Part shown: piece by piece, positions 1,422-47,283 of the stretch
How the letters are laid out: every line of letters begins with the position of its first letter
Position numbering within the stretch: position 1 is the first letter of the stretch
Assembly: GCA_030295235.1 (NCBI GenBank)
Contig: AP026127.1
Coordinates: forward strand, 126,501 to 190,500
Source of the DNA: Fistulifera solaris
Taxonomy: Eukaryota; Bacillariophyta; Bacillariophyceae; Naviculales; Stauroneidaceae
Length of the DNA: 64,000 nt
Direction: 5' to 3'
Program-made: the position numbers and the translations under genes
The notes under the pieces: model-generated
Told to the model about the DNA's origin: nothing
Database searches by the model: none
The model's input: the letters and a program-made list of their open reading frames with translations, nothing else

Positions 1422-4400
1422 TCAGAGGAAATAAAGTGTGTTGGCATATCTTTCGGCGCTAATCGAACCGCCATGATCCGGCATATTTCCCGCCAACTCG
1501 GCTAACTTGTGCGCGTACTGCGTTGGTGCAGGAAGCTTGACGGGACCGGCCCAATTGGCGTAGTTGTGACACGACGACCAAGTAAGGGAGGGAATATCGA
1601 CTTGAGCAAGTCCTGCATCGCGGTGCACGGTAATAAAGCGCACGGGCTTTGGGGTGCTAAACGGCGGAGCTCTTCCATTGATGTAAAAGGTGTGGTGTCG
1701 CAAACCTTGGAAGCCTTCCACCAATGTCCCACTAGGAGAGCCGAATGGCTGCTGTCCCTCCATCGCAAAAAAACTTAGTTGCGATTCGTTTCTGGCAGAC
1801 GGCGTAAGCAAGAGGGACCGAATTTTCAATCTTTTGGTTCCTACGACTGCATCTGCACCGAGTCCTTTTCGAATACCTTTCATTTCGTCTATTGCGTCCG
1901 TAGCGAATGCACCCTCTCCGATTCCATCGCGCCAAATTACGCATGATTTAGGTTTCTCGTGAAGAAGCTTCAGTGCGGCTTTTACTGTTTGTTCCAAGCA
2001 CTCATTCAATTGATATTCTTGGCCCGGTTCTTGAACGAACGTCTTCGTGTACGTCAAAATGTCATTTTCTTTTCGAACAATCTGTACAACTATCGCAGCA
2101 ACAGACGCTTTCCCGACTTTTTCTTTAGTGATAGGATTGAACACACGGGGGGCGTGATAGACATCTATCGCCAACAAGCACAGAAGGTAAAGGAAGCTCT
2201 TTTGGGATTGAAACCCACCAGATACGTCGCCAACCTTTTCCAAAATTTGCCGAGCCACTCCTTGCAAGATGATGTTTGATCGCTTCATGTCACGCGGTTC
2301 ATCATGACGATACGTATTGAAATTCACAAACTAAGAAGGAAAGAGAGCGAAGAAGTGAGCAAGGGATCGAAAAGCAATATACGACGTCTCCTCTTACCTG
2401 AGATATGTAACCGTTCTGAGCTAATATCATCTTCACGACGGGATAATCAGGGTCCATAGAACCACGGGGTTTTGTAAAATCGAGAATAAATACGTTGGCA
2501 GGAACTTTACCAGAAAAATGCTTTTGGACAGCTCCATGATGACTTTTGTTCGCGTCTGGAACAGCGTGTTACGTAAGAAACTACATTATCATTAAAGATT
2601 CGGTGCACTTAGTTCAACACAGACTTACCCACTTTCACCACCTCGTGAGGCTTATTGCCCAAAACGAAACTTTGCATTGTGCCCGTTCACAAGGTCGCGA
2701 ATTCGATCGTACGTGTCCTTGTACCCGCCGCCTCTTCGATCAAAAATGCGCTGCACACCAAAACGACATTCAAAGTCGTTGCTTGAGACGTATTGACATT
2801 GAATTTTGCTTTGCTCAACACCGGTGCCCAATTATCTGCTTTCTCTTTCGGAACTGAAACACCAGCAGCAATAATCGAAGGGACAGGCATGACTTTGCAA
2901 GTGGCATTGATCGGCGATTGCAATGCAATACCCAAGGCGGGCAAAAGACCACCGGCACCGCTGAGTTGTCTGTGCTCCGGGAATTAGATACTCGCGGACA
3001 ACATCAATTGCTTTGTTTCTTTCTTGGGGATTGAAACCAGCAATCATCGGAAGTTTTTCTTTCACTTCGGGGTCCAGTTCATTCCCAGTCACAAGCTCAG
3101 CGGGTAAGAAAATTTTACTCTTGTTTCCGACCTTCGACAACCATGGGCTTCGCACTGGGATATTTCAATTTCATTTTCTTGCGAGTTGCAAAGTATTGCG
3201 TATGAGACGTCTGCGTCCCCGGAATCATTAAGGAGTCTGGACTATGATCGAACAGCAGATCGACAACAGGGTAGCACTTCTTGTCATACGTGGTAATAAC
3301 GGTCTCACCTATCCATGTGCGCTTTGCATTATCCATGTCGGCCTTGGATAAATTACCCTTGGAAGGCGAATAATTGCCTTTGTAAAGGGGCGTCTAGCAG
3401 CGTCGCGGTGCGAATCAGTTTGGCACGAAGATCAATCGTCAAAGTAAGACGAGCCACAGCACTTTTCGTGTTCGACTGTCGCATCAGGTTAAAGTTGCAT
3501 CGGTAGGCTTTGAAGATCTTGACACCCAACGACTGACCATTACGATCCGTTGGCTCGGTAAACGACTGTGGGTCGATAAATTCACGTCCCCATCGAGCCA
3601 TGCGTTCGCGTAAAGCACCTTCCAACGCCACGTTCGCAAACATTTCGAATTCCGCAACTGATGCCGGTTTAGTCACAGAAGTCTCGTCGGAATAGACCGG
3701 TTGATGTCCCTTTGTCGACTTTGCAAAAGTAAAAGCATGAAGTTAGTTTGACTAGCATATGCGCAGGCGCATATACTACAAAACAATGAAACATACCAGT
3801 GCTGCAAAAGCGACTGCTCATCCCGAAAAGCTTGCGTACAATCCGCGACATCGCAAGTCCGCCAACACGACATGTTCTTCGGCAGGATTCCACGCGACCG
3901 ACAATTCTTTTGGGGCCGACAGTTTTTGCATGTGCACAATGCGCATGACATCTCCGTTCGTGGTGGATCCATCACACAAGGTAAGCGGCAATTGATCAGG
4001 TGTCGATAATCCAGGAATGTCACGACCCGACATGAATGTCAAATTTTGAAAAAAGACTACGCAGGAACGGTACACGTGAGAAAGTTTTCGCTTGTTTTAA
4101 TTTCTCTTTCGTTTTACGTACCCACTCGCTTCAAATCTTCAATTTGCTGCGGTGACAGCTGCCGAGCCATAAACAGATCCCAAAACCCTGTTTGAAAGAG
4201 TTGAAAGCGTCGAGTACGTCCATCAATCAATTTGTTATTCTTATCGCGACATTCGAGACTAAACATCCAAAAGGAAAAGCTGGGAGAGACTTGAGCTGTA
4301 ATAAAAGAATGTGCGAAAGTAAGACACGATATTCTCAAAAAGTGCAGAGCGATCAAACTATTCCTCTTCAATACTCATACCTGATAGTATATTCGTGCGA

Positions 4401-4709
4401 CCACGAAGTCAATTGAGAGAAATCCGGTCCTCGGCCTCGACCTTCACGTCCACCGCGGCCTCCTCCTCCTCGAAAATCTCTACCACCGCCACCGCCACCG
4501 CCACCGCCTCGACTACTATCACCACCTCTTCCTCGACCTCCGCCTCGATTACCGTCACCACCACGTCCGCGTCCTCGATCGCTGTTTATGGGGGAAAACG
4601 AATGAGACAATCGTTCTCAGCGCAGCTCACAAGCCCTAGCGAAGAAAAGCGTACCCTCTGCCAGAAGAGCCGCGACTTTCAGCGTCCTCCCTCGACCACC
4701 GCGATGCAT
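1422..4709 (-). CDS. AGO: Argonaute protein (PAZ-MID-PIWI), slicer residues present
   Basis: Small-RNA-guided effector of RNA silencing. The start I prefer is the ATG at 4709 (MHRGGRGR...), which joins through an intron at about 4582-4654 to a glycine/arginine-rich (RGG) N-terminus. Further introns lie near 4296-4380, 4076-4123 and 2328-2395. Domains in order: N domain (VSPSFSFWMFSLECRDKNNK), PAZ at about 3115-3336 (GETVITTYDKKCYPVVDLLF), linker and MID at about 2400-3155 (LPMIAGFNPQERNKAIDVVR; ALQSPINATCKVMPVPSIIA) and PIWI at 1422-2327. PIWI shows IDVYHAP, WRDGIGEG and PAPTQYAHKLAEL, which supply the two Asp and the His of the DEDH slicer set; a Glu is available in the helix before WRDG. 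The protein ends TLYFL, like other Argonautes (YFA/YFV). Several one-base frame changes occur: near 2170-2230 one shift and its opposite restore WWVSIPKELPLPSVLVG followed by IDVYHAP. The Dicer gene is divergent and adjacent. Confidence 0.95.
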
Positions 4710-5359
4710 GTTTCTTATCAGCTAGTTAATAATGAGACAAATGTTAATTATGTTAAAAGGAATCAGGCATAGACATAGAAACGTGAATATTTGAGCAAAA
4801 GATTTTTTCTGTTTATTAGGTTATTGCGCTGCTGCGTTTCAAGTTTCAATCGTGTCCCGCTTTCCACGGTTTGTACAGTTCTAGACTATACTGTACCACC
4901 CAAAATATTCAACAGCCAATCAGAAGCCGTACCTGGTAGGCGGTACCACTGCGAAAAATTCATCCGCCAATCAAATGCATCGGAGCGATCGCTGATGCGA
5001 GCCGTGTTCGCTGCTGTTCGCGATGAAAAACGGGGAGACAATAAAACTCGAACAAGAGGATGTAGGAAAGGAGAAAGTGATACTTATGCGCAAGTACTTG
5101 TTTTCGCCGCGTAAGAAATGCGAGAAAATCGGAGGCGAACATGAATGAAGCGAAAGAAATGGATCGCAATCCATTTTGAGCCTGTTCTTTGAGTGCATTT
5201 TTGAGTGATTTCTCTTCCCTGTTCTGCTGAGAAGAATCATTCTTTGCAAGCGGAAGACTTGCATTTCCTCTTTGACTCTGCTTTTTCGTTGACAGATCTA
5301 CTTGACTGAAATCCACAACAATCTGTCGCCAGGCAACGCATCGAAGCGAAACGCCAATC
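4710..5359. promoter_or_regulatory. shared intergenic region between Argonaute and Dicer, with CCAAT boxes
   Basis: This 650-bp stretch separates two divergent start codons (minus ATG at 4709, plus ATG at 5360). It holds CCAATCA at 4916-4922 and 4967-4973, both on the plus strand and 51 bp apart. A third CCAATCA at 5354-5360 abuts the Dicer ATG. CCAAT boxes are common in eukaryotic bidirectional promoters. The open frames in this stretch have no recognisable protein content. That it drives both genes together is inference. Confidence 0.55.
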
Positions 5360-8300
5360 ATGAGTCGTTCTCATTCCTCTTTGCACGAGGATGTTCGACA
5401 ATTCCTCTTTGAAACGTCGGTGACGCCGGAAGACGTGGCGCAAGTTCAAGGAATTGTCGAAGGCAATTACACAAAGTGTTGCGCATTATGAGCGAGAAAA
5501 TCGAACGTCGTTCCGCTGATCCTGTCGTCGTCTGTCCATAAGAAGACCAAACACACGACCCTCAATGACGCGGAACGCGATCAGTTGATGGATTCTCTGG
5601 CGAAAACGACACACGATCCACGTTCCTATCAGCGCATTTTGTTCGAACGTGCCAAACACGAAAATATTATTGTTCATTTGGGGACCGGAACCGGTAAAAC
5701 GTGGATTGCACTATTGTTATTGCAGCATTATGTCGAACAACAACGACCCATGGTCTTTTTGGTGCCCAGTGTCGCCTTGGCGGTTCAACAACATGCCGTG
5801 TTGAGTGTGCATTTGGAGCAGGTGCAGTTGGCGTGCGCGTATCACGTTGCACCGTGTGGCGGAAGAAACTTCGAGCAAAGTCTTGGTCGCGACCCACGGG
5901 GCGATATTTGGATTTGTTGCGACATTATCCCGATCAATATTCACTCGGGCAAGTCAGTTTAATGATCTTGGATGAATGTCATCATTGTATTGGGAATTCT
6001 CCGTGCTTGACGATTTTGCGAGACTACTATCATACGTTACCACAGAATCAGAGGCCGCGTGTTGGGTTTGACCGCCTCGCCCTTAATTGCCGTCAAAGTC
6101 AATCATACCGAAGAACAATTGACGCAATTGTTGACGCAACTAGAAGTTCAAATGGATGCCAAGATTGTTGCACCGCCGGCCGATGATGAAGATAGTCGTT
6201 ATCACGAACAGGAATGTTCCGAGCATTGCATCCCGTACCGTATGGATAGTGGTGTGTCGACTAGTCCGTTGCCACGGATTCCTGCGAACAGTTTGCATCC
6301 GGCGCGTCTCAAAGAATTCAAGCAATTGGAACAGCTAGAACTCGATCTGGGGCCTTTGCCAGTGATCTGGTATTGTCGATCACTGCAGTTGAAGCGGAAT
6401 CAGTATCAAAACGAAAAACGAGAACAATTTCAAGCGGGCGCAACAATATTTGGAGCGTGTGGCGGCGTGTCGTGAAAACGCATGGGACCAGTCACAAATT
6501 ACAATGCCTCGAACAATTGTTGGAGCAAGAATTGTCGCGGAAGAAACATGCCGTGGGGGTCGTCTTTGTGCAGCGTCGGATCACGGCTTGTGCTTTGGAT
6601 CAGTCCTTTCAGCATCGGAATCATCAACAAAAGAAGAACGACTTGCAGCAAGTCCGCCATGACAAATTCAATGGTCAATTTGCGGATGCGGAAGACGACA
6701 ACATGAGCTGGGAGGGGCTATCACCGCATCAGCCATTGATTCGGTGTTGCAGTATGATTCGAAAGAGCACGGGAAGCCAAATGTTTCGTGCCGGTGCCAA
6801 GCTTTCGCAAGAGGAAATGAATCAACAGAGCGCAGCTAATGGAAGAAGAAGAAAACAACATTCGAAAGACGTTAGATGGATTGCGAAAAGGAACGTTCAA
6901 TGTCCTAGTAGCCACTTCCGTGGTGGAAGAAGGTGTTGACCTTCAAGCCTGTTCGTTTGTAATTGCGTTTGATGCTTTAACGACAATTAAAAGCTACATC
7001 CAAATGAAAGGACGGGCCCGACAAAAGAGCCAAATTTTACTTTTTTGAAAACGATCACGTCGCTGGTTTGAATCACGAAAGACGCAAGCCGCCTGGAGAA
7101 GCGCATTGAGAATGCTGTGGCAAACGAAAGTAGAAAGCAAGAGGAGAATTATCGCGGCAGTTCGTCTGGTCTGGCATTTCTCGATGTGACGCCAAAATCA
7201 AGAGCTAAGCACTGAAGAGCTTTTTGTTCTGCGCAATGGAAGTTACACGGCGGAACTAGGTGCTGTCTTTTTGAATTCGGCCAAATCCTTGTTGTATCGC
7301 TTTGCATTGAGCCAGCCCATCGATTGGGTGACCCGATCATCGAAACGTTCCTTGCAATCTTACTTACCCTTCTTGACGAGCAGTGCAACCAGCTCACACT
7401 ACCCGCTTACTGTGGAGCTGGAAATGGTTTGCGATCCATCTCGCTTCCCGAAACGACTCTCGTTATGCCGAAAAAAGATAAGCAAAGATGCTAGCGCTGA
7501 TCGCGTGCGTTCGATTGCATAAGAATGGGTTATTGTCTCGGCGATTGTTGCCCTTCTCAAGATCCGAACTCCGCCAGAAGATATTATCTTTCGTCAAGCC
7601 AAGGCCAAATCAGAATGATGTGGCAACTAGACCGACAATCTTTTCATTTCCGTCTTTGACTGACAAAACGACTTGCTACATTAATATACTTTGTATGGAA
7701 GGGGAGAGAATGGAAGAAAACGCGCAAGTCGTTTGGCAATTTTGGTAAATCTTTGGCCTTAGTTTGCTTCGAACCGTTACTGGAACCTAAAGAGATGTCT
7801 GTCATGCATCATGACCATCCTCAGTTTGGTCGATTGGCCTGTTCTATGAAAAAAAGCCGCCCGATTCAGTGCACTAAAAGCCAGATCGCGCTTCTTCGTG
7901 AATTTTTCGTAGTTCTTTTCAACGCTCGCTGGAAGAAACGGACTAAGGATGGTGTCTTCAAACTCCAGCGAATCGAACGAATCAATGATAACTCCTTCCT
8001 ATGTGCTGGGCTGCATAGATGATCAGCACAACCTGGACTGGATGTACATGCAAAAGATCGTTGACGAAAGCAAGCGTAATGCTGCTGAGTTGAAAGCTGC
8101 GGCCCAGCAAGTGTCGAAGGGGCAGCCCTTTGTCCGTCCTCGGCTCTGGATTCCGGATCATGATCCGATGAGCGTTTTGTAGTGTATGGCGGCGGGTTTC
8201 AGAAAGATAGTGAAAAAGTTGATGACAAAAATGAATCGATTTTCTGTCAATACTGCTGGCAACTTCCCATCACTATCTTGCATAAAGATGGCAGCTCATG

Positions 8301-9963
8301 CGAGGCAGCGACCACGCAGAAGCTTTTGAGTCCAGCATTCCCATCTGCCCTTTTTTGAAAGGACGAATGCTCCCAAAATCTATATTCCATGAAGCCCCTC
8401 TGGCAGGCGCGCAGTGTATTTCGAGGCTTTGCTGTTACCGCAGTCGTTGTACTTCCCTCGAGCGAATACAAACAACGCGAGCATTTGTTGAGCATTGTCG
8501 CAAGCACATTCCCATTTTGGCCCAATGTCTCGAAGAAAACAGTACAGATGCGGAGATCGCTACTCTTCTGACAGCCGCTAGTTGTGCAGGCGAAGATAAT
8601 TATGAACGCTGGGAATGGTTTGGCGATGCAGTCTTACAGTTGGTAATGACCGACGTTTGTTTCCGATCACCACATCTCCGACCCTGGATGCGCGGCTTTC
8701 ACGAAGGAGATCTGGATGTGATTCGGTCCGCATTGTGTTGCAACGATCGTTTGGAAGAAGCTTGCCTCATGCTGTCCATCGATCGATTCCTCTTCACCTC
8801 CGAGCTTGCTCGTGGTCAATGGACCCCGCGCGTCATGAAGTTGGTGTTCAGTGAAAGTACAAGCTCGAAAAGTAGCAGTAAAGCACCCCGAGGCAAGATT
8901 CTGGCCGATGTGATAGAGGCTATACTCGGTTTGGTGTATATGCGTTGCGGTGGCTATCCAGCCGCCCGTCCGGCCGATGAGCTGGGCTTGACGATAGAAT
9001 GGGATCCTTCCATATCGTACACTGAAGCCATGAATGGAAGCCGCTCCCCTCCTGCATCGTTGGAACAGACTATATCTCAGGGGACTGGTTATATTGCGTT
9101 TACGCGCCCGGCTTTACTGCTCGGGCGTTCACCCATCCCACTTGTTTGGACGTTCATGTCGCTGCCTCACGAACGTTTAGAATGGATCGGTGATGCTGTC
9201 TTGGCGTTGGCTGCCCGGTTGTGGATATTTGATCAGTACAGCGACAAGGAGGATGGCATGTCGGTCGGACGCATGGTGACTTTCGAAAAGCAGTTTGTTT
9301 GCAATTCGACTTTGGCATTTTTGGCCTGTCGAATGGGATGGCACCGTCACTTCACGTCATCACGATGCTACCTTACCAGGTCGTATCGAAGCGTATTGGG
9401 CCAGTGTGAGCCGAGAGAGTCGCGGCATTTGGAGCACACAGCCTCCCAAAGCGTTGGCGGATGCCGTGGAAGCCGTGTTAGGAGCCGTCTTTGTCGACGG
9501 AGGATGTGCGGCCGGAGTGCAAGCGGCGCACGAACTACTGCGTCCTTTTCTTGAAACAGTCATTGGGAACGAGGATCAGATCCGTCACCCGCAACAAGAG
9601 TTGTTGGAATTGTTGGGAGATATGGCAAAGATATCGGTAAAGTTGCGTGATGCAGATGAAGACGAGGACGATAATGGGCAAGACACATTTGGTCTGACTG
9701 CGGTTGCTACTATTTCACTATGGGGAGTCCCTGTTTTGACGTGCGTCGCCGACCATCCGCCCCGCTGCGACACATCGAGCTTGTGCTTTGCTATTGTCGA
9801 TTCTGGAAAAGGACAGTTCTTGGATGCAACAGTTGCAAGCGATTCGAAACAAACAGATTGGGTTGCCGAAGAAACAAGTGACAGAATCTTTAAAACGTCA
9901 GAAACAGTAATTGATGTACATAAAGACTTCTATAGTCCTATTGAAAGTTTCATTCCATCTTAG
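5360..9963 (+). CDS. DCL: Dicer-like ribonuclease: helicase plus two RNase III domains
   Basis: Cuts double-stranded RNA into small RNAs for Argonaute. Starts MSRSHSSLHEDVRQF. Helicase part 1 (about 5585-6150) has Walker A (LGTGTGKTW), DECHH (LMILDECHHCIGN) and LGLTASP. Helicase part 2 (about 6839-7060) has NVLVATSVVEEGVDLQ and QMKGRARQKS, typical of the Dicer/RIG-I helicase branch. The middle third (7100-8500) is poorly conserved; I do not see a clear PAZ, though LPQSLYFPRA resembles the connector near it. RNase IIIa (about 8580-8960) has YERWEWFGDAVL and KILADVIEAILG. RNase IIIb (about 9150-9510) has HERLEWIGDAVL and ALADAVEAVLGAVFVDGG. The acidic catalytic residues are thus present in both. 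No C-terminal dsRNA-binding domain is obvious. The frame changes at many points (about 5445-5510, 5875, 5912, 6055, 6470 and 8450, among others), yet domain order and motifs are conserved, so I read one gene with sequence errors. Confidence 0.93.
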
Positions 9964-23104: not shown

Positions 23105-25028
23105 TTAGGCCGCCACTTCTTCTTCATCCTCGTCCTTGATCTTGTCCGTCTCGCCGTGTTCTTCATCGTCATCCGGAAGACCCGTATGTTCCATCAAGGC
23201 CGTCACCTTGGCCTTGAGGAATTCCATATCATCCGGGAGATCCTTCATGGTAAGACGGACGCGTTCGCGACGTTCAAAGCACGTATTGAGAGTCTGCTTG
23301 CCGTCTTTGAAACGCCACCAGTACGCCAAGTAACCCAAGGACAAGATGAGAACCACCACCAAGAGCGATCCGAGCACCGTCAGTCCCTTGCTACCGTCCG
23401 AAAAGAGGAAAGAGATACCCAAACAAATCGCAGGAAGGATAACAAACATGACGAAAATGTACAAGAACGGGAATCCACGCCACTGACGGGTGGCTTTTCC
23501 GAGCTTGACGAGCGGCGTGAATGGGCATCGCGCGCATAAAGGGGATTGGGTAAAAGATGGCAATACCGGTAATGTTAAAGAACAAGTGGCACATGGCGAC
23601 TTGCAAGGACTCGGTTCCTTCCGTGACCATGGAAGCCAACAAAGCCGTGACGGTAGTACCAATGTTGGATCCCAACGTCAAGGGGTACATTTGGTTCAAA
23701 TGAATCGCACCAATTCCCACGAGAGGGGTCAAGGCGGAAGTGACGACGGACGAGGACTGAACCAAGATGGTCAAACCGCAACCCACGGCAATCGCCACGT
23801 ATCCATTGACATTGGTGGCCTTGTGCACGACACGGGTCGACAAGCCGAGCAACATGCGCTGCAAGACATTCACCAAAGCCAACAAGCAGGTAAAGAGAAT
23901 GACAATGGAGATGAAGAAAACAACTCCACCAGAGACCTTGTCGTCCTTGGCAGTGGCATTGGGCTGGAAGAAGGAGGGGCAGGTGTTCTTGTCGCTGTTG
24001 CACGAAATGAGACCAACTTGCTTGCACTTGGAGGCGGTGGGTTCTCCTGGCTCGCAAAGAACGGGATAAAAGCCATCACCGTCGTCACAAGAGCCGGTTC
24101 CCTTGGCCACGGCAGTAATCAACTTGCTGTTGGACTTGATGATGCGTTCTCCGAGCGGTGCAACGAACTTCTTGACGGGTCCTTCCCAAGTTTCACCATC
24201 CGACGTCGAGGCATTCTTGACCATGGCTCCCGTCAAGTGACGAAGATAACCGGTTGCAATCTCGAGGGGGAAAAGGACGCACACGGTCATGTAGTTGAAC
24301 ATATCGTGCACGGTGGCACCGGCAAAGGCGCGTTCCAACTGATCCGCATCTCCCAATTGACCCAAAGACACCAACGTGTTTGTGACGGTAGTACCAATGT
24401 TGGCTCCCATGACCATGTAAATCGCTTGACGAACCGAAATGGCCGAACCGACGAGCGAGACAATGATGGAAGTGGTGGTCGAAGACGACTGCAACAAGAC
24501 CGTCGACAAGATACCCACCATGAGACCAGCGACGGGGTTAGTTTCGTCACCAAACAAGGCACCGGCGGTGCAGCCCGTCATGACCTTGGCGCTGGTGCCC
24601 ATCAATTCGAGACCAAAGAGGAAGAAATAGAGGAAGAAGCAGACGACGAGGAATCCTCCAAACGCGTAGCCCCATTCCGTAGGCGAGCGTACGCAGCAAG
24701 CTTGAAAGACTTCACCCCAGGTGGCATCGGCCGGTTCTTCGTCCGCGTTGAAATCATCATCACCAAAGTGAATCGATCCAGTAGGACGATCCTTGCGCGA
24801 GGTGATGGGCTTCTTGGGTTTGTTATCTTCGTCCGACTGTGTTGTGAAGAATGGGGATGTGAGAGCGAGGAGCGAGCGCAAAAAATAAGCAACAGAGAGA
24901 AGAAGCGAAAGATAGTGTATTTATCAAGAAATAACCGTTTTCGAATAAAAGAAGCAATACGCTGATGGAAAGCCCGCGCTGAAGAAGCAAGAACATTAGC
25001 CACGAGAGCAGATACAATCACTTACCAT
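23105..25028 (-). CDS. NPT: type II Na+/phosphate cotransporter, paralogue 1
   Basis: Plasma-membrane sodium-coupled phosphate importer of the SLC34/NptA family. The ATG at 25026-25028 is followed at once by an intron (24837-25025); exon 2 starts SDEDNKPKKP. The two inverted repeat halves are clear: the first has GDETNPVAGL, LLQSSSTTTSIIVSLVGSA and GANIGTTVTN; the second has LVQSSSVVTSALTPLVGIG and GSNIGTTVTALL. The QSSS motifs form the substrate site in this family. About eight hydrophobic helices are visible, with a loop containing paired cysteines between the halves and an acidic C-terminal tail (DDDEEHGETD). One extra A (about 23514; CAAG where paralogue 2 has CAG) shifts the frame at AARQ/LGKATRQWRGFP; the rest is intact. 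The coding region is GC-richer than its flanks. Confidence 0.93.
24837..25025 (-). other. intron directly after the start codon of transporter 1
   Basis: The donor GTAAGTG abuts the ATG and the acceptor is CACAACACAG. The only coding bases of exon 1 are ATG. The same arrangement occurs in paralogue 2. Confidence 0.85.
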
Positions 25029-28551: not shown

Positions 28552-30364
28552 TCATCTTTCATCATCGGCACTCGCTTCATCATCCTCACTGTCCGGCAGA
28601 CGCGTATGTTCGATCAGCAAGGCAATCTTGGCCTTGATGTACTCCATATCCTTGGGGAGATTTTGCAACGTCAACCTAACGCGTTCGCGTCGTTCAAAAC
28701 GATCGCTACAATACCGTTTTCCGCCCTGGAAACTCCACCAGTAAAAACCATACGCACAGCTGATCACCATGATTGCTACCGAAAAGGAACCCAGAACAGT
28801 GAGCCCCATACTGCCGCTGGAGAACAAAAGGAGAGACCGAACGAAGTTATCGGGAACAAAAAGAACATGAAACCAATGTACACAAAGGGAAAGCCCCGCC
28901 ATTGCCGCGTGGCTTTTCCGAGCTGACGAGCGGCCTGTAGAGGAAAGGCCCGCATGAAAGGAATAGGATAGAAAATAGCAATTCCAATCAGATTGAACAA
29001 CAAGTGACACAAGGCAACTTGAATGGATTCGGTTCCTTCCGTGACCATGGCCGCCAATAGTGCCGTAATGGTGGATCCAATATTGGCGCCCAGCGTCAAC
29101 GGGTACATGTGATTCAACTTGATTACACCAATGCCCACCAGCGGAGTTAAGGTCGAAGTCACGACCGAAGAGGATTGTACCAGCAGTGTCAGACCACAGC
29201 CAAGAGCCATATTGACATAGCCATTTAGATTGGTAGCTTTGTGAACAATACGGGTCGATGATCCCATCAGCATACGCTGCAAGATATTCAAGAGCGCAAA
29301 TAGGCAAAAGAAGAGCATGACCACGGCCAGTGTAAAAACGACTCCTCCCGAGATTTTGTCTTCTTTAACGGTCGCATTTGGTTGAAAGAACGACGGACAG
29401 GTATTTCGTTCCCGATCGCAGGCAATCAAACCAACTTGAAGACATTTATTATAAGAAGGCTCCCCCGGCTCGCAGAGAATGGGATAAAAGCCATCGCCCT
29501 CTTCACACGAGCCTTCTCCATGCGCAACCGCCGTCAACAACTCCTTGTTGGCCCGAATGATACGATCCCCCAACGGCGCCACAAATTTCCGAATCGGTCC
29601 TTCCCACAATCCTCCGTCGGTCGTAAACGTATGCTGCACCATGAGTCCGGTCAATCGCCGCAAATATCCGGTCGCAATTTCGAGCGGAAACAAGACAGCG
29701 ACGGTCATCATATTGAACATATCGTGCACCGTCGCCCCGGCAAACGCCCGTTCCAGTTGATCCGCATCACCCAATTGCCCCAACGACACAATCGTATTGG
29801 TGACCGTCGTCCCAATATTCGCTCCCATGACCATATAGATGGCTTGCCGCACCGAGATCGCCGAGCCCGCCAACGATACCACAATGCTGGTGGTGGTCGA
29901 AGAGGACTGCAACAAGACAGTAGACATCAAGCCCACGGTCAATCCGGCCACCGGATTCGTTTCATCCCCAAATAAAGCACCGGCCGTGCAACCCGTCATG
30001 ACTTTGGCACCGGACCCCATCAATTCGAGGCCAAAGAGAAAGAAATACATAAAAAACAGGACACCACACAAGCCTGCGGCAGCGCGCATCCACTCTTGCG
30101 ACGTCCGGACACAGCACGCTTCCAAGACTTCACCCCATGTCGCGTCTTCGTACTCATCATCATCATCGTCATCATCCGCGTACGGTAACGAGTGATGCAA
30201 GGACGAATGCAAGTGGTCTTCTCGAATGGGTTTGTGTGTGTCACTTTCCGTGTCGGACTACCAGGATCGAACGGCAGGAATACATGAGAACGAAGAAAGT
30301 AAAGATGCCATACAACACAGAAATACAAGAAAAACACAAGAATAGTCACTGAGAAACTTACCAT
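28552..30364 (-). CDS. NPT: type II Na+/phosphate cotransporter, paralogue 2
   Basis: Same family and architecture as the gene at 23105-25028. The ATG (30362-30364) is immediately followed by an intron (30258-30361); exon 2 starts SDTESDTHKP. The motifs GDETNPVAGL, LLQSSSTTTSIVVSLAGSA and GANIGTTVTN mark half 1; LVQSSSVVTSTLTPLVGIG and GANIGSTITALL mark half 2. The soluble loop with paired cysteines (CEEGDGFYPILCEPGEPSYN) is conserved between the two. The acidic N-terminal stretch ADDDDDDDEYEDATWGEV precedes the first helix. One frame change near 28825 (FGLSF to LLLFSSGSMGLTVLGS) divides the C-terminal tail, which ends DSEDDEASADDER. Two copies could differ in affinity or in regulation by phosphate; that is not visible here. 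Confidence 0.93.
30258..30361 (-). other. intron directly after the start codon of transporter 2
   Basis: The donor GTAAGTTTCTC abuts the ATG, and the acceptor CCTGGTAG precedes TCCGACACGG. It is phase 0 after codon 1, the same position as in paralogue 1, but shorter (104 against 189 bp). Confidence 0.85.
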
Positions 30365-34290: not shown

Positions 34291-35894
34291 ATGTCGACTA
34301 GAATGATTCAACCACGTATCTTTGTTCCATTGTACGACCCTGTGTACTTACAAGACATGACGGAAACGCAACGTTTGGCGATACGGAATGCAGCGTTGCG
34401 ATTTCGAAAGTATGCCACCACCAGCGTCGTAGTGGGTTGGAATCCCGAATGTTGCATGCTGTTACATCCCCGACGTGCGTGTACGGCAAACTCACAACAC
34501 CATCACGAGTATACCTCCCATTTGATGTTGCAGTTCACCGATGTGCGACAGACGACAACCATTTCAGTGTTAGGATCGTCACACGCGGCTGTAGGACGAC
34601 TCGCAACTTGGCTGTGGAGTGGACCCACGAAGCCTTCGCATGTACACATTTATGGATTGATGTTCGATTTTTCCATCCTTTCTACAGATTCGTTGCGTAA
34701 CCTGGCCCATTGTTCCAGTGTTCGGTTCACGAATTGCACCATGACGGCTGAACAGACGGCTCTCGTGGCTTCTTTGTTGGAAAACGACAAAACCATTGCA
34801 TTTTCGGACTGCAAATTTGCCGATGGTGGTTCCGCGTTTCTGGATGCGTTGTCCAGTCGTGACAATAGTGGCGGTAGATTGGAAATTGTTCCGCGCCAGG
34901 AATCAATGCGTGTTGAACTACTGGACAAGCCATCTTTATTGCGACTGTTTCAACAAGACTTCTTCCTGGAATGCCTCAAAGTAACCTCCCATTTATTCCG
35001 CACCCACCCAAATATGCTGCTGATGCCATTTTCCGCGAAAACTAAAATGGAGTACACCCTGTACCACGCCGATGAAGCTGCCTGGCAACAGCATACGAAC
35101 GGTACCGACGGCCTCCATATTCGTCCAAGCGACTTTCATTTGATCGTACACGATGCCCAGCAACCCGAACTAACGCATTCTGAGCATGCGAATGCGACAG
35201 CAACGGATATGGTGTTACCGCAACTGTTCTTTCGCGCGTGTCGTCACTCGAAACATCTTAAAAATTGGGATTCTCGTATCATCGTTCCGGTGGCTCGACT
35301 CCTGTGCCTCTGCCACAAGACATTCAAACCAGTCTCTGTCAAGCTTTGGATGCGAACGATGGTATTCAAGAATTGACGTTGGATTGTGGTTGCACGTATG
35401 ACTGGAAAGCGGAAACAAAGGGCCCAAGTCTGATGAATGTCTTGGCCACACATCGCGGACTCCGTACACTCACATTGGTGGTCCATCAAAAGTCCGACCC
35501 TACGCTGGTGACTCACTTATTCTCTCTGTTGCAGCTGAATCGACATTTCGAAGTCCGCTTTCATAAGAGTTCCGACAGTGGCTTCACGCCACTGGTATGG
35601 GAACATCAACTCCGATCCATTCTCGTATTCAATCGCTTTTATCGATCCACGTTGGCGTTGTGTCAATGGGATCCATATCGATTCCATGTGTGGTGTGCCG
35701 GAATTCGGCGACTCCAGCAAAAGAATCACTATCGTGTCTACCATTTGGTGCAGTGTGAGGATCAACCGACTGCCTCGAATCATCAATCCATCCGGAAGAT
35801 GGCTTTATTCTTGCAGCATCACACGGATCTTTTGTGTCTTTTGGTCAATGAAGTGATACAAGATCAATCTACCGACACGCATAACATTGAGTGA
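34291..35894 (+). CDS. repeat-type (leucine-rich-like) protein of a large diatom family
   Basis: The ATG at 34291 starts MSTRMIQPRIFVPLYDPVYL. The body alternates short hydrophobic strands and helices (VRFTNCTMTAEQTALVASLL, FSDCKFADGGSAFLDALSS), as in leucine-rich-like solenoids, without a strict consensus. A frame change near 35270 joins DSRI to SGGSTPVPLPQDIQTSLCQA and ALDANDGIQELTLDC. The C-terminal part has VFNRFYRSTLALCQWDPYRF and LQHHTDLLCLL, similar to the minus-strand gene at 59816-60750 (SFNRLFL; LLSEHTDTLCESL). The total is about 530 residues. Such proteins are numerous in diatoms and uncharacterised. No localisation signal is seen. Confidence 0.6.
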
Positions 35895-36530
35895 CTTTCA
35901 GCCGTGTCGTGCTCCGAAGCAGGTTGGGATAGAATAATCGATAATGCTCGTTGAGCGAAGGAAACTGTGAAGTTTGCTTCCATTTATTCGCTTATGAGTC
36001 AATCAGTAGCATTTTGTTTTAGCGATGTCGACCAGTATTGTTAGATACCAACCGAATTCATCGCATCGAACTGTGCGCCTTCCCTGGTAGCAGACATTAA
36101 ACGGCGAAAACAAACCAAACTTTGAGATGGGCTGTTCGGAATTGCTCGAGACGGACGACAGGCCAGTTTACTTGTTTGTCGTTTGTCGTTCCGTCGTTCC
36201 GGTCCACAGTCCACCCTCCACACATTTCGCATACAGTAACGTAATTCTAAGGCTGTGTTTTGGGCGAACAGTTTGCGTTATAGAGATTATAGAGGTATTC
36301 CACTACATTAAGTACTTGGTTGATGTCATTCGTCATCCGTAATCCGTTTATCGTCATCGTCATCGTCATCGGTCATCGGTCATCTTCGATGCGATGAGCT
36401 TCGAGCTTCGAGCTCGTAATTCATTCGTAAATCGTTAGCCATCGTACGGTATGGAGAGCGGAGTATGTTTTGTGTTTTTGTGTTTTGTGTCTCGTGCTTT
36501 GTAAGAAGGACTACAATTCGAGGTAATATG
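35895..36530. other. AT-rich intergenic with simple repeats, target of the gypsy insertion
   Basis: No gene seen. A (TCGTCA)n / CATCGGT tract lies at 36351-36384 and repeated GAGCTTC at about 36397-36411. The last five bases (ATATG, 36526-36530) are the target duplication of the retrotransposon. Confidence 0.6.
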
Positions 36531-36741
36531 TGCGTAAACCTACGATGAAGAAAAGGGTTCACAGAGATTTTATGATTACAAGACTACGGGTTGATAGAAA
36601 AGGAATGAAGAGGCCGACCAGTGAGAGGTCGGGAAGGAACATAGACGAGGTCTAGAGCCGAAGGAACAAGGACCTTAGGTGACGCGTCACTTGAGTACCG
36701 ATTGGTGTCTGATAGGACATGACGCGCTGGAGGGTAACGCA
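36531..36741 (-). repeat. 3' LTR of the gypsy element
   Basis: 211 bp, identical to 41495-41705, with TG...CA ends (as read on either strand). The purine tract next to it (GGAGGCAG on the minus strand) is short. Confidence 0.95.
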
Positions 36742-36856
36742 TACTGCCTCCAAGGTTCATGACCGAGAGGAAAGAAATGAAAAAAGGGAGAGGAACCTTT
36801 AGAATAGGAGAAAACCTCACCGATGATAGGGCTTGAGTTGGCGGATGTTAAGCCGT

Positions 36857-38166
36857 TCAAGAGTGTGCGCATCGCGCCCGAAAGGTAACTGTACCATTCG
36901 TATGAACAGATTCAATCCGATAAGGACCAATAGCTCGCGTAGCTAGCTTTTTGGGATTGTAGACTAGTTTTAAAACTTCGTCACCAACATGGTAGTCGTG
37001 AGGCAAAGCGTTTGCGATTAGCAGCGTTGAGACGCTCGCATCAACGAGCTGTTGCCGATTTTGCTGAATCGTGATCCAGTCGGCAATCACGGGTAGATCT
37101 AAGATCATATCGCGGCCGAAAACTAAAGAACCCGGAGTTGCTTTAAGTCCGCTATGAAGCGAGGCGCGAATAGCGAAAACACAGTTTGCCAGCGCAGTGT
37201 CAACCATTTTGGTTGCAGTAGACATACTGTCAATTGGGTGGAGAGTTTCCAATGTACGGAGAGTGTTTCCGACAGTTTGATGCATTCGTTCACAGATGGC
37301 GTTTTGCAGTTGGAGTTTTTGGACCTGCTGGTGCACGTCTGATTCGGTGACGATTGAGTAATGACTGGAAACCAATACCAAGAAATTCGCCGCCTTGGTC
37401 GTATGTACAACGCAAGGGCTTAGGATAACGAGAAAGCCACGTATTCTCAAAATGCATGGCGACATGTTCCGATTGTTTATTGTCGATGCGAACGAGTTCG
37501 ACAAGGTTTGTGACCGGATCGATCATTGTAAGTGCTGAAAATGTTGTTGTTTGACCACCTATTGTAAGTTCCCATGGACCGATAAGGTCAACATGGACTT
37601 CACGCCAGGGGTGAGCGGAAACTTCGGCTGGCGAGATGGCCGAAAACCACGAAGCGGTTGTTTGTTTCGTTGACAATTGTCGCACTTTGAAACCAAATCC
37701 TCAATCTTTGTTCGAAGATCAGGGTTGTAAAGATGGAGTCGCATGGTGTCAAAAAGACGCTGATTGACCGAGATGGCCGAGAGCGGTGTGATACCAAAGG
37801 ACGGCTTGGTGAAGAAGCTCGTCGGGAAGATAAATTTTCCAAGGTTTATTTTTCTTCGGAAGAAAACAAGTAAGATACAAGTCGGGTGCGAGCAGCTGAT
37901 CCGCAAAATGCTCGGGATGTTTCTCACGAAGGGCTTTCAATCGGGTGTCCCGGCGATTGAGCCTCGCCGAATTGTGTTGTAGTCGAAAGTACAAACGGGG
38001 CCGATTTGAAATCGGGTAAATTGACGAAGCAATCAAGAAGATCGTCATCGTCGATGGCCATGGAATAAAATGAAGTAGTTGCTGCCTCCTTGCAAGAAGC
38101 AGGGGATCCTTTGAGTGATTCATCAAAATCAAGACGCTGAAAGAGCGTTGGCAAGTTCGTTTTCAC
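36857..38166 (-). CDS. integrase region of the gypsy element
   Basis: Split over at least three frames. The zinc-binding part has LLHQAVLWYHTALGHLG and later CDNCQRNKQP (HH...CC). The catalytic core shows VHVDLIGPWE and CTYDQGGEFLG for the two Asp, and NAICERMHQTVGNTLRTL for the Glu. The C-terminal part has YHVGDEVLKLVYNPKK and a chromatin-binding-like tail GPYRIESVHTNGTVTF. It inserts the cDNA, leaving the 5-bp duplication seen here. A degraded relative of this C-terminal region lies at 45605-46107. Confidence 0.85.
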
Positions 38167-38366
38167 TGCCTTTGACGTAAGAAAGTTTTACCGTAGTCTT
38201 CGAGAAAAAAGACGCCAACGAGCGATTCGTTGAGTAGTTAATGTAGTTAAAACATTATTAGAATGATCGGTGTAAACATGAATGTTCTGACATCCGTAAA
38301 GCATAGTACGAAACTCTTTGAGAGTCTCTCACGATTGAAAGAAGTTCTTTCTCACCGACGGTGTAG

Positions 38367-38705
38367 TTACGCCATACCGAAGTTTAACTTTTTAGAAAAG
38401 TAAGCGACAGGGGCGCCTTCCTGAAAAATAGCGGCACCCATTTGCTTATCGGACGCATCGGTGTAGATGTGGAAAGGTTTGTTATGATCGGGATACCGAA
38501 GGAAAGCATCTTGTGCAAGTAGCGCTTTGATTTGATCGAAAGCGGCAACCATTTCCTTGGTCCATTTGACTTTTCCGGTCCCGCCGGAGACGGCCGTAAG
38601 AGGGGCTAAAATGTGAGACCGGCGAGGGTACATATCACGATAGAAATTGATTGCTCCAAGGAAAGAGCGGAGTTGTGTGTGAGTTACCGGCTGTTTGATC
38701 GCCAA
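38367..38705 (-). CDS. RNase H region of the gypsy element
   Basis: The frame has LRSFLGAINFYRDMYPRRSH (connection from the reverse transcriptase), then PFHIYTDASDKQMGAAIFQE, whose TDAS is the first catalytic aspartate of gypsy RNase H, and PVAYFSKKLN. It is joined to the RT by a frame change near 38680-38705. Confidence 0.85.
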   Translation of the reverse strand: MAIKQPVTHTQLRSFLGAINFYRDMYPRRSHILAPLTAVSGGTGKVKWTKEMVAAFDQIKALLAQDAFLRYPDHNKPFHIYTDASDKQMGAAIFQEGAPVAYFSKKLNFGMA

Positions 38706-39614
38706 AAGGCGTCGATCTTTTGCGCCAAGGTTTTAATCCCTTGGGAGTAAGCCAATGGCCAAGCCAGTCTGTCTCTTGGACACCCCACTCGCATTTGGAG
38801 GGGTTGACGGTGAAATTGTTGTCCTGTAAAATCGTGAGGACTTTGTCTAAAGACGCGAGATGGTCTTCCCAAGAGGAAGAAAAAACACCCACGTCGTCGA
38901 TGTAACAATTGACTTCGTCGAGGGCTCGGAAAAGCGTTTCCATGACTTCCTGAGCAATGTCTGGCGCTTGCGACACTCCCATAGGGAGTCGGTTATAACG
39001 GTAATTCCGAAAGGTGTCGTGATGACGCATAGGTCTTTACTGGCTTCGCCGAGTTCGAAGGTGTAATAGTGCATAGAAACGTCGATTTTCGACATAAAGG
39101 CATAGCCGATGCGGCGAGATAGGACCTCGGAGATCTTTGGAAGATGATAAACACGTCGTTTTATCACCTTGTTGAGTTGCCGAAAATCTGAGATCCATCG
39201 GACTCGTCCATCTTTTTTCGGAATAATGAAGGACGGCGCGAGCCAACGGGAGGCACCGCATGGAGTGAGGACACCGAGTTTGACAAGAAACTCGAGCTCT
39301 GATTTAAAAGTTGGCGCATGGGTTCGAGAAACCGCATACGGTCGACAACTAAAAGGTTTGGCGTTTGGATCGATCTCAAGAGAGAACTTTTTCTTGGCAT
39401 AACAACCGAGCTTCCCAGAGAAAAGTTTTTTGTATTTTTTGAAAAGCTCGGCGAGCTGAAGTTGTTGAGTGGCACTGAGGTGCTTCTGATTTCTTGCAAC
39501 AACGAAAGGATCGACTTCTTCGTATTTAGACGGGAGAATATCCTTGGATTTATATCCGAGTTCGTGAGCAAGTTCTTCAGCGATCTGCGAACGGATTGTC
39601 CGATTCCGATGCAA
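38635..39614 (-). CDS. reverse transcriptase of the gypsy element
   Basis: Ty3/gypsy type. It has LVKLGVLTPCGASRWLAPSF, IIPKKDGRVRWISDFRQLNK and LPKISEVLSRRIGYAFMSKI. After a frame change near 39000-39030 it has NYRYNRLPMGVSQAPDIAQE and the YxDD active site in CYIDDVGVFS. All main RT blocks are recognisable. Confidence 0.9.
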
Positions 39615-40418
39615 AGCTAGCCGAGAAGGCTGTTGGATGAAAATAATTCGGGGGATGATACGGAATCATGTATTCGTGCCATTGAACAGTCATGGTAGAC
39701 GATTGGATGTCGATTCCAAGTGTTGTTAAAACATCATTTCCGATAATAACATCGTAAAGAGAATCATTATTGTTATAGACCATAGCTGTATGGGCCCGCT
39801 CACTCGGAGTGAACTAGTGAACTCGGGAAACATGATTTCCTCGAGCATGACTTCATGGCGATGAACTCCGACACCATGAATGCCGAGAACCTTTGTGCCC
39901 GGCACCGTGGTGCACTGGGTCTTCTTTGGAAGAGCGCGACGATTAATCATCGTGCGATCGGATCCGCTATCGAATAGCACGCGAAGAGGTTTATCATTCG
40001 CTTTTTTCTGAATTAGTTTGCACGACATAACAGTAGTTGGACGAACACGTTCGTTAACAAATTGAAGACTATTATTTGGTTTAAGATTAATGTCTGTTTC
40101 TCCTGAAAGGAAATGCAAATCACAGAGAGCCGTAAAACAGTTCGGAACTCCCTCCTCATTTGGCTCCGGATTCGGAAACATCTGATTCACAGAAGAAAAA
40201 GAAATGAGGCCGCATTCGGCGGAAAAAGCGTGAGATGCTGACAAGTAATCTGTTGTACCAAACACGTCAGTTGTGAACATACCAGTAAGGTCGTCAATGT
40301 CAAAGACATCATCCATGTTGAACTTGGCGGCCGTGTCGTCAAGATTCATGGCGGAGTACGCGTCGTTAATTGCCGCTGACTTTTCCATCGTCCTCGGGGG
40401 CAATAGTTTCGGTGACAA
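39577..40418 (-). CDS. aspartic protease region of the gypsy element
   Basis: RVLFDSGSDRTMINRRALPK contains the D-S-G active-site motif of retroviral-type proteases. It is followed by HGVGVHRHEVMLEEIMFPEF. The N-terminal side is acidic. A frame change near 39750 leads to NDSLYDVIIGNDVLTTLGID, where the family usually has the second conserved block (IIGxDxL). Confidence 0.85.
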
Positions 40419-41464
40419 GCGTTTCCGCTTCCGATGTCCGTGTCCATTGTCTCTGCCACGTGAGTAGCGGTAGAGTTTTTACCGGACCAAGCGACCTTCA
40501 ACTTGGAGGTCACATTTTGGAACAAGCCTTTTGCTTTGTTGGGATTCATGTTGCATTGGAACCACTTGTGGCCCTCCTTGCCGGCTTGCTTCGGGTGAAG
40601 CTCGCAATCGAGTTTCGGGTCCTGTTTGTGGTCCCAAGCGTAGCTATTCTGGATAGCACGTTCGATTTGCGCATGGGACATGCGGGGTGGTATTTGTGTT
40701 TCGCCGCGAGAATCCTTTTGGGCGGGCGATGTCCGGAGCCCGATGAATTTTTCTGGCCGTTGCCGGACGGTTTTGCGGTCGCCTGAGCGTTGTTGTTCGC
40801 GGTTTTGGCCTGTGCAAGGCGCTGGAGAGTCGACATATAGTTTTTGATCTCAATGGTGGAAAAATCCGTGAGCGCCGTGGTGCCCTTAAAAGCGATCCAG
40901 CGATCGCGCCAAGCCGGGGGCATGGAGTTGAAGAAAGCGGTTTTGAAAGCCAGCTTCATCGAGGGCTTTGTGAGGCCCGGAAATACGCTCGATGCGTTGG
41001 TTTGCTTGCATTAAAAGCAGGTAGAAGTTGTCGACGGGGTACCCGTTCGTTGGAAACTCCGGGTTACGGACTTCCTCGACCAAGCGGGCTTGGTGTGTGT
41101 CCTGGAAAAATTCCTTGACGTAAAGTCGGACGACTTCGTCAAAAAATTGTTTCGACTTGTTGAAGTTGTTCTGAGTGAGAACCTGGGTTTCAACGCTCTG
41201 ATAAGCAGATGAGTAAGTGTTGCTGTCGAGCGTGCGCCCGAAAACGATCCAGCAGCTCTTAATGAACTGGTCGCCGGTGTCCACACTGTTGCGGATGCCG
41301 TTGAAAACACGGTCGAGGTGCGACATGAAATCGCTGAAGCTGTGTACGTCCTGAGACAAATACGGGAAGGCAAACTCGTAGTTCACTCTTCCAAGTGACC
41401 ACTTGATGTTTCTGGTCGGAAGCGGGCGGGCTTCCGGGTTAAACATTTTGAAGTCAATCTTCAT
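40346..41464 (-). CDS. gag region of the gypsy element
   Basis: The ATG at 41464 lies only 30 bp from the 5' LTR. The capsid-like part (MKIDFKMFNPEARPLPTRNI; FFDEVVRLYVKEFFQDTHQA) is intact to 40886, then changes frame twice (near 40930 and 40680). The C-terminal part has a possible metal-binding pattern (CELHPKQAGKEGHKWFQC), not the classic CCHC knuckle. It would form the particle that packages the RNA. Confidence 0.75.
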
Positions 41465-41494
41465 GGTTGGTGTTTGGGGAGAACAAGATCTTGA

Positions 41495-41705
41495 TGCGTA
41501 AACCTACGATGAAGAAAAGGGTTCACAGAGATTTTATGATTACAAGACTACGGGTTGATAGAAAAGGAATGAAGAGGCCGACCAGTGAGAGGTCGGGAAG
41601 GAACATAGACGAGGTCTAGAGCCGAAGGAACAAGGACCTTAGGTGACGCGTCACTTGAGTACCGATTGGTGTCTGATAGGACATGACGCGCTGGAGGGTA
41701 ACGCA
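41495..41705 (-). repeat. 5' LTR of the gypsy element
   Basis: 211 bp, identical to 36531-36741. It is followed directly by the ATATG duplication at 41706-41710. The 55 bp after that include repeated GATAGAC units (about 41718-41738). Confidence 0.95.
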
Positions 41706-41844
41706 ATATGGACTATGGACGATAGACGATAGACGATAGTGAATAAAAGAAAGGAACGAGGACGATGCGCTACCACACATGGCTCAAACCGTCCCACTTG
41801 GCTTATTGTTTATTCATGGGAGTTCTCGATGGGAGTTCATCTTT

Positions 41845-41930
41845 GAACTCCCACGACTGGTGGGAGTCCTTTCTTGGACTCCCACGACCGGTGGGAATCC
41901 TTTCCCGGAACTCCCACGACTGGTGGGAGT
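41845..41930. repeat. three tandem hairpin-forming units, left arm
   Basis: ACTCCCACGACTGGTGGGAGT recurs three times at about 30-bp spacing with few changes, and each unit can fold on itself. The inverted copy is at about 47120-47206. A further loose repeat (CTCTCGAAGACAACAACAGT and variants, about 42085-42205) follows in the same arm. Confidence 0.8.
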
Positions 41931-44900: not shown

Positions 44901-45604
44901 GCTCAAACTCACTTCAATGATCAACGCCCCGCACATCAATGCACCAATATTTTATTGTTTATTGCTTCCAGCAATCTTGATCATCTGTCACGACAGAAAC
45001 ACTCTCAAACGCAAACATTGCAATACAAACGATCAGTCGTTGCTCGCGACACACACAACTCCATACGAGTCCTTAGAGACCGAAACCGAACTCTTCATCC
45101 CGAAGATTTATACTCCATTAACAATTATTTTGTTGGCCTTCGGCCTTTGTTTTCGTTTCACGAAAAATACCAATTGCATACCTTGCAAACCTACGAGCAC
45201 CGCTCTGCATAATTCATTTCCTCCAACAAAGCTTCAATAGCAATGGAGGTCATCTTCCTCGCGAAGTAGCCGCAGGTGATAGAGCACGTCCACTCTGGAC
45301 CTCATTTTTTCATCGACCTTCGGTCGTCCTTTTGTTATCAACAAACCTTTCATCGCGCGCCGATGCACACCCTCAGATCCCAGTCACGCACCTGACTGTA
45401 GAGTCCAGTACAATCTGACTCTCCTGTATCACGTCATACACACCGACAAGAGGAGGAGTAACTTATGACTTACAACTTACGACAACAGTACTGAGCTTAC
45501 CGGCAACTGTTTTCAAAATCTACTTTCCAACTGTCCCATAACGACATCAATGGTCGTTGGTCGTTCCACGACTGTAAAAACCCCAAGGGAAATTCACTCT
45601 GTGA

Positions 45605-47119: not shown

Positions 47120-47206
47120 GACTCCCACCAGTCGTGGGAGTTCCGGGAAAGGATTCCCACCGGTCGTGGGAGTCCAAGAAAGGACTCCCACCAGTCGTGG
47201 GAGTTC
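47120..47206. repeat. three tandem hairpin-forming units, right arm
   Basis: Inverted copy of 41845-41930, with the same three units in reverse order. Confidence 0.8.
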
Positions 47207-47283
47207 AAAGATGAACTCCCATCGAGAACTCCCATGAATAAACAATAAGCCAAGTGGGAAGGTTTGAGCCATGTGTGGTAGCA

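What the first reader, a model, noticed from the sequence alone, without database searches (positions are those of the whole stretch)
1422..9963. Argonaute and Dicer genes sit head to head as a compact RNA-interference locus
The minus-strand Argonaute (start 4709) and the plus-strand Dicer (start 5360) are neighbours separated by about 650 bp. The two core enzymes of RNA silencing are usually scattered in eukaryotic genomes. A divergent pair would allow co-regulation and co-inheritance. Seen directly: both domain sets and the spacing. Inference: shared promoter and functional coupling. I do not know of this arrangement being described in diatoms, but I cannot search.
Basis: partly seen in the sequence, partly recalled or inferred. 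Interest (0 to 1): 0.88.

Follow-up and report, generated by a model that had tools for sequence, protein, structure and literature searches.

The report
Neighbouring PIWI-like Argonaute and Dicer genes
In an oil-making diatom the gene for an enzyme that cuts small silencing RNAs and the gene for a PIWI-like protein that could use them sit back to back on both sets of its chromosomes, a real but apparently lineage-limited arrangement whose shared control is untested.

Summary
The minus-strand gene (1422-4709) is an Argonaute with PAZ and PIWI domains; the plus-strand gene (5360 to about 9910, not 9963) is a Dicer with a helicase and two RNase III domains. They are divergent, 650 bp apart. The genome is the allodiploid diatom Fistulifera solaris, and the homoeologous contig C8 carries the same pair. 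A third, unfetched contig probably does too (inferred from equal contig length). Both frames are broken by many 1-2 base slips, but intact near-identical proteins exist and dN/dS is 0.13 (Dicer) and 0.07 (Argonaute), so assembly error is far likelier than decay. The Argonaute is nearest to animal PIWI proteins by sequence, narrowly by fold, and keeps the DEDH slicer residues. The Dicer's PAZ region is shortened; a second, PAZ-bearing Dicer lies on other contigs. In Nitzschia inconspicua and Epithemia clementina the listed Argonaute and Dicer hits are on different contigs, so the pairing looks lineage-specific. The surrounding region is largely collinear between homoeologs, so retention alone shows no selection. 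A shared promoter is unproven; two CCAATCA motifs in the gap are conserved. No paper row I saw describes the pairing.

The parts
1422..4709 (-). PIWI-like Argonaute gene with short introns, broken by assembly slips; the intact protein of its C8 homoeolog is P0001 (936 aa, named 'aubergine [Fistulifera solaris]')
1425..2330 (-). last exon, PIWI domain; motifs holding the DEDH residues at 2148-2165 (D), 2010-2024 (E), 1911-1931 (D), 1500-1517 (H)
   Evidence: PF02171 E 4.7e-25; motif positions; P0001 aligned to solved Piwi
3118..3393 (-). PAZ domain of the Argonaute
   Evidence: PF02170 E 4.6e-8
3692..3843 (-). C2H2-type finger of the Argonaute; its two halves are separated by what looks like an intron
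   Evidence: halves at 3799-3843 and 3692-3709; C201, C204, H217, H223 of P0001 are each kept in 90% or more of 49 aligned homologues
4371..4616 (-). RGG-rich N-terminal tract
   Evidence: open frame; tandem repeat rows
4710..5359 (.). 650-bp divergent intergenic region
   Evidence: C8 counterpart about 665 bp, placed by alignment (the C8 Dicer start codon was not read)
4844..4859 (+). 16-base block TTTCAATCGTGTCCCG identical in C8
   Evidence: window position read
4916..4922 (+). CCAATCA motif conserved in C8
4967..4973 (+). CCAATCA motif conserved in C8
5360..9910 (+). Dicer gene, no intron in the path found, broken by assembly slips; intact near-identical protein P0103 (1502 aa)
5492..7045 (+). 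helicase: Walker A 5681-5701, DECHH 5971-5985, Helicase_C within 6821-7045
8094..8300 (+). region (approximate) where ten other aligned Dicers have a longer, PAZ-like stretch
8592..9480 (+). RNase IIIa (motifs 8604-8630, 8901-8921) and RNase IIIb (9171-9197, 9454-9474)

Best explanation
This is a real, functional pair of RNA-silencing genes in Fistulifera solaris: a helicase-type Dicer with two RNase III domains and a PIWI-like Argonaute that keeps the slicer residues, transcribed away from each other from one 650-bp gap on both homoeologous contigs. The likely mechanism is that the Dicer cuts double-stranded RNA, mostly from transposons, into small RNAs that load into the PIWI-like Argonaute, which then directs cleavage or heterochromatin marks. 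Shown: gene identity, order, catalytic motifs, purifying selection, presence on both homoeologs. Inferred: that the two act in one pathway, and on transposons. Open: whether the gap is a shared promoter.
For: Domains; profile alignment of 13 such Dicers with 8 others over most of the length, E 7e-118; catalytic motifs in the window; dN/dS 0.134 and 0.067, out-of-frame controls 1.4 to 3.1; the pair also on C8; probable linkage on an independent 40,946-bp contig. In Phaeodactylum, Dicer processes 26-31-nt small RNAs mostly from transposons (review PMC11910954, passage).
Against: Animal PIWI proteins work without Dicer (recalled), so a PIWI-like partner is not automatically in the Dicer pathway. 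The genome has other candidates: a smaller Dicer-like protein on C19/C20 with two RNase III domains and a PAZ match below cut-off but no helicase in its open frame, RNase III matches on C27/C29, and a second Argonaute pair on C25/C26. There are no expression or small-RNA data. The window's own frames are broken.
Confidence: 0.65

Rival explanations
1. The adjacency is a chance product of rearrangement in the Fistulifera lineage; the genes are functional but their neighbourhood has no regulatory meaning, and they may even serve different pathways.
For: Listed hits lie on different contigs in Nitzschia inconspicua and Epithemia clementina. The region around the pair is also largely collinear between C7 and C8, so co-retention needs no selection. 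The gap is only 58% identical. A second Dicer-like gene and a second Argonaute pair exist elsewhere.
Against: By hand arithmetic with about 10,000 genes per subgenome (9007 homoeologous pairs and 2441 other genes, PMC5935921, passage), a named pair shares a divergent border by chance about once in 10,000; about 0.004 for any shared border among 21 pairs of seven RNAi loci. The choice of what to call surprising was made after the fact.
Confidence: 0.45
2. The gap is a true bidirectional promoter, with CCAAT-type boxes driving both genes, and the pairing is kept by selection for balanced dosage.
For: Starts 650 bp apart in C7 and about 665 bp in C8; two CCAATCA motifs and identical runs of 17, 17 and 13 bases survive in a region 58% identical, against longest runs of 5-6 bases and about 40% identity in 3 shuffles. 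Two of the window's 13 CCAATCA copies lie in the gap and a third overlaps its edge, with 11.3 expected in the whole 64 kb.
Against: The motif was picked after seeing the alignment; its total number in the window is as expected by chance (38 of 100 shuffles reach it). Conservation of other C7/C8 gaps was not measured for comparison. 650 bp also fits two separate promoters.
Confidence: 0.3
3. Both genes are decaying pseudogenes.
For: Many 1-2 base slips in both copies: 48 small indels in the Dicer and 24 in the Argonaute alignment (10.5 and 7.4 per kb), against 0 in an HSP70 pair, 2.9 per kb in the 15.2-17.3 kb block and 1.8 in a C25/C26 block.
Against: An intact protein identical to the window in three open stretches (P0103) and an intact F. 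solaris Argonaute (P0001); strong purifying selection; other blocks of the window show small-indel densities as high or higher.
Confidence: 0.03
4. The pairing is an assembly join.
For: The assembly has slips here.
Against: The same order occurs on a second contig, 81-83% identical, and a third contig, inferred from equal length, holds both proteins.
Confidence: 0.02

Closest known systems
Canonical Dicer of plants and animals (best solved relative: Endoribonuclease Dicer homolog 1, 7eld)
   Same: N-terminal helicase, sub-cut-off Dicer-dimerisation stretch, two RNase III domains, profile alignment over most of the length
   Different: No PAZ found by Pfam; the PAZ-like stretch is shorter than in ten other aligned Dicers; no dsRBD called by Pfam
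Dicer-like proteins already annotated in other raphid diatoms (Seminavis robusta P0110, Pseudo-nitzschia multistriata P0122, both named 'Dicer-like protein 1')
   Same: Helicase and two-domain RNase III families in one protein (precomputed Pfam)
   Different: 33 and 32% identical; their neighbours could not be read
PIWI proteins of animals (solved: EfPiwi 9iiy, MIWI 9s0z, MILI, Siwi)
   Different: C2H2 finger before the PAZ; gene sits beside a Dicer gene
RNAi genes of Phaeodactylum tricornutum and Thalassiosira pseudonana
   Same: One Argonaute and proteins with two RNase III domains reported (PMC3145265, PMC3155517, passages)
   Different: Those Dicers are described as lacking the helicase, or the helicase protein as lacking RNase III; the passages seen mention no adjacency. 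The C19/C20 protein of this genome resembles them more than the window's Dicer does
Phytophthora tandem Argonaute duplication (PMC6284064, passages)
   Same: Stramenopile RNAi genes as neighbours
   Different: Argonaute beside Argonaute, not Argonaute beside Dicer

Membership tests
Dicer | two RNase III domains with the signature motifs | tested here: met
   PF00636, 2 stretches, E 8.8e-36 in P0103; motifs in the window
Dicer | N-terminal DExD/H helicase and helicase C | tested here: met
Dicer | Dicer dimerisation domain (DUF283) | tested here: inconclusive
   PF03368 at 18.4, 20.3 and 19.7 bits in P0103, P0104, P0105, below cut-off 23.7; 26.2 in the Epithemia relative P0113
Dicer | platform and PAZ | tested here: inconclusive
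   no Pfam PAZ at E 0.1 in 4 of 4 scanned; residues 740-1045 align with residues 696-985 of P0149, which hold its platform and PAZ, at probability 80.9, E 1.2e-5; PAZ-like stretch shortened in P0103, P0104, P0105 (by eye)
Dicer | C-terminal dsRNA-binding domain | tested here: inconclusive
   none called by Pfam, though the profile alignment reaches column 1493 of 1592
Dicer | cuts dsRNA to fixed length | not testable with these tools
   no assay
Argonaute superfamily | PAZ and PIWI in order, Argonaute fold | tested here: met
   model residues 59-936 match solved Argonautes
Argonaute superfamily | DEDH slicer tetrad | tested here: met
   aligned residues (which four residues they are is recalled); window motifs
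PIWI clade | groups with PIWI and not AGO proteins | tested here: inconclusive
   similarity and fold rank PIWI first, the fold by a margin that is partly a tie; no tree was made; a published tree left diatom Argonautes in neither clade (PMC6284064, passage)
Bidirectional promoter pair | divergent starts within 1 kb | tested here: met
   650 bp between start codons
Bidirectional promoter pair | co-expression from shared elements | not testable with these tools
   no expression data

The most novel reading that the evidence does not exclude
A compact PIWI-Dicer module: one bidirectional promoter drives a PAZ-reduced Dicer and a zinc-finger PIWI protein that receives its products directly, giving Fistulifera a Dicer-dependent, PIWI-executed transposon-silencing unit that is inherited as one block and was carried intact by both parents of the hybrid.
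Probability: 0.15. Interest if true: 0.72.

Novelty: new variant of a known kind. Interest (0 to 1): 0.48.

Why it matters
Core RNA-silencing genes are normally scattered in eukaryotic genomes (recalled). A divergent pair in a diatom that can be edited (a CRISPR paper on F. solaris, PMC13276009, seen as title and start of abstract in a listing) offers one locus whose removal would take away a Dicer and its possible Argonaute together, and a way to test whether PIWI-like proteins outside animals take Dicer-made guides. The contrast between a helicase Dicer with reduced PAZ here and a smaller Dicer with a weak PAZ match and no helicase found elsewhere in the same genome would let the two pathways be separated. 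If the pairing is only chance, what remains is a further example of the helicase-type diatom Dicer, already annotated in Seminavis and Pseudo-nitzschia.

Tried and rejected
Pseudogene and misassembly readings were considered and set aside. Rfam (gathering threshold) and tRNA scans of the window gave nothing. Viral contigs yielded no relative of either protein, singly or as alignments, nor bacterial/archaeal genome contigs one of the Dicer alignment, so no further flanks could be read. Linkage elsewhere was therefore tested only through the longest-contig column of the protein tables: compared by eye, only 40,946 occurs both in an Argonaute list and in the Dicer list; one search listed the best 120 of 194 hits, and searches scored only the 7998 candidates sharing most words. 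P0103, P0104 and P0105 carry no species name; calling them Fistulifera-type is my inference from identity (92, 82 and 64%). In Chaetoceros tenuissimus the Dicer and Argonaute accession numbers given in PMC8613185 (passage) are about 16,000 apart, a weak sign of non-adjacency. No AGO/PIWI tree was made, for want of reference sequences. Foldseek 'pdb' was not obtained; only the VIA re-alignment was. A search of the genome with P0103 did not complete. P0103 is not identical to C7: it lacks about 15 residues that C7 and P0104 have.

Literature: in searches I saw listings only (20 of 146, 20 of 649, 6 of 6, 15 of 1,078, 15 of 240, 15 of 9,273, 8 of 92 and 12 of 20 papers), and no title or abstract start shown describes an Argonaute-Dicer neighbour pair in diatoms; only open-licence papers are held. 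The main diatom Dicer paper (Grypioti 2024) and the F. solaris genome paper are not held, so a description there cannot be excluded. Of the eight papers opened I saw found passages only.
Full report
What is there. Pieces of the minus strand between 1422 and 4709 match PIWI and PAZ, and pieces of the plus strand from 5360 match helicase and two RNase III domains. The start codons leave 650 bp between them. The Dicer ends near 9910: the intact protein P0103 matches 9761-9907 exactly to its last residue, while 9963 belongs to another frame.

Which organism. The window is C7:126501-190500 of a 51.7-Mb, 61-contig genome in which gene families come in contig pairs (C7/C8, C19/C20, C9/C10 and others). 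The protein P0001, named as Fistulifera solaris, matches C8 at 100% in four stretches of 16, 56, 53 and 94 residues, and at 60-85% in longer stretches that cross slips or introns. This fits the allodiploid F. solaris, for which 9007 homoeologous gene pairs are reported (PMC5935921, passage).

Same pair on the homoeolog. C8 carries the Dicer on its minus strand and the Argonaute on its plus strand at about 100.3-108.8 kb, 81-83% identical to the window by blastn. Other blocks along the window also align with C8 in order, apart from cross-matches between a duplicated gene, so retention of this pair is part of general collinearity and is not by itself a sign of selection.

Independent support. 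The Dicer P0104 (1514 aa) and the PIWI exon P0210 (98% to P0001) are both listed with a longest contig of 40,946 bp from NCBI. I infer one contig from the equal length; it could not be fetched and bears no species name. In Nitzschia inconspicua the Argonaute hits lie on contigs of 6,358,255 and 6,574,884 bp and the Dicer on one of 2,684,404 bp; in Epithemia clementina on 1,812,712 and 1,517,376 bp. The pairing is therefore not general in diatoms, though unlisted paralogues remain possible.

Broken frames. The alignment of the two copies shows 48 one-to-two-base indels in the Dicer and 24 in the Argonaute (10.5 and 7.4 per kb), against 7.2, 3.4 and 2.9 per kb in three neighbouring blocks, 1.8 in a C25/C26 block and 0 in an HSP70 pair. 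By blastn, five other blocks of the window have 14.0 to 25.5 per kb, about as many as or more than the blocks holding these genes (14.3 and 12.3), so the density is not special to this locus. Intact near-identical proteins exist: P0103, 92% to the read-through by the search table, 95.6% over unmasked columns and 100% in three open stretches of 20, 136 and 49 residues; and P0001. Codon-wise comparison of C7 and C8 gives dN/dS 0.134 over 1440 Dicer codons and 0.067 over 913 Argonaute codons (codons taken where the reading agrees with P0103 or P0001), with third-position changes dominating and frame-shifted controls from 1.4 to 3.1. Assembly error is the best reading. The 72 slips lie near CG more often than random positions (0.74 against 0.45 within 3 bases, z 4.8), as methylation-linked nanopore errors would; GC is enriched too (z 3.0) and AT depleted, so base composition may explain it.

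Other RNAi genes. C19/C20 carry a second Dicer-like protein: in C20 one 590-residue open frame with two RNase III stretches and a PAZ match at 25.7 bits (cut-off 28.8), no helicase in that frame or in the neighbouring frame scanned. C27/C29 have RNase III matches, C25/C26 a second Argonaute pair, C5/C6 and C34/C35 RdRPs.

How it would work. Dicer cuts double-stranded RNA, and the PIWI-like Argonaute uses the product. In Phaeodactylum, Dicer processes 26-31-nt RNAs mostly from transposons (PMC11910954, passage). That these neighbours act together is inference, since the genome offers other partners for each.

The gap. It is 58% identical to C8 over 624 aligned bases, against about 40% for three shuffles, with identical runs of 17, 17 and 13 bases. 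Two CCAATCA motifs, 51 bp apart in C7, are kept. Other gaps were not compared. This is compatible with a shared promoter but does not show one.

Verdict. A real, functional and unusual arrangement of known kinds of gene, so far seen only in Fistulifera and, by inference, an unnamed close relative, and untested for co-regulation.

Noticed in passing
window 1422-9910 and C8 100.3-108.8 kb: One-to-two-base slips between the copies sit near CG dinucleotides more than expected (0.74 against 0.45), which might reflect DNA methylation in nanopore reads or only base composition; other window blocks are as rich in small indels.
   Followed up: partly
P0103, P0104, P0105 (window about 8094-8300): These Dicers have a shortened PAZ-like stretch compared with ten other aligned Dicers, while the second Dicer of the same genome (C19/C20) keeps a weak PAZ match and shows no helicase in its open frame.
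   Followed up: partly
window 3692-3843: A C2H2 finger lies before the PAZ of the Argonaute; its ligands are kept in 90% or more of 49 aligned homologues.
   Followed up: partly
window 34696-47397: About 12.7 kb without a blastn match in the fetched C8 stretch, where the flanks are 0.5 kb apart; it holds a sub-cut-off reverse-transcriptase match and two tandem arrays, at 41.8 and 47.1 kb, that are reverse complements of each other. Probably an insertion specific to C7.
   Followed up: no
window 23391-24920 and 28776-30257, minus strand: Two similar Na+/Pi-cotransporter-type genes lie near each other; Pfam was run on the first only.
   Followed up: no
C25:223376-223843, C26:203711-204193: A second, divergent Argonaute pair in which the residue aligned with the catalytic His of AGO2 is Gln (C26 aligned, C25 read by eye); no RNase III match on those contigs.
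   Followed up: partly
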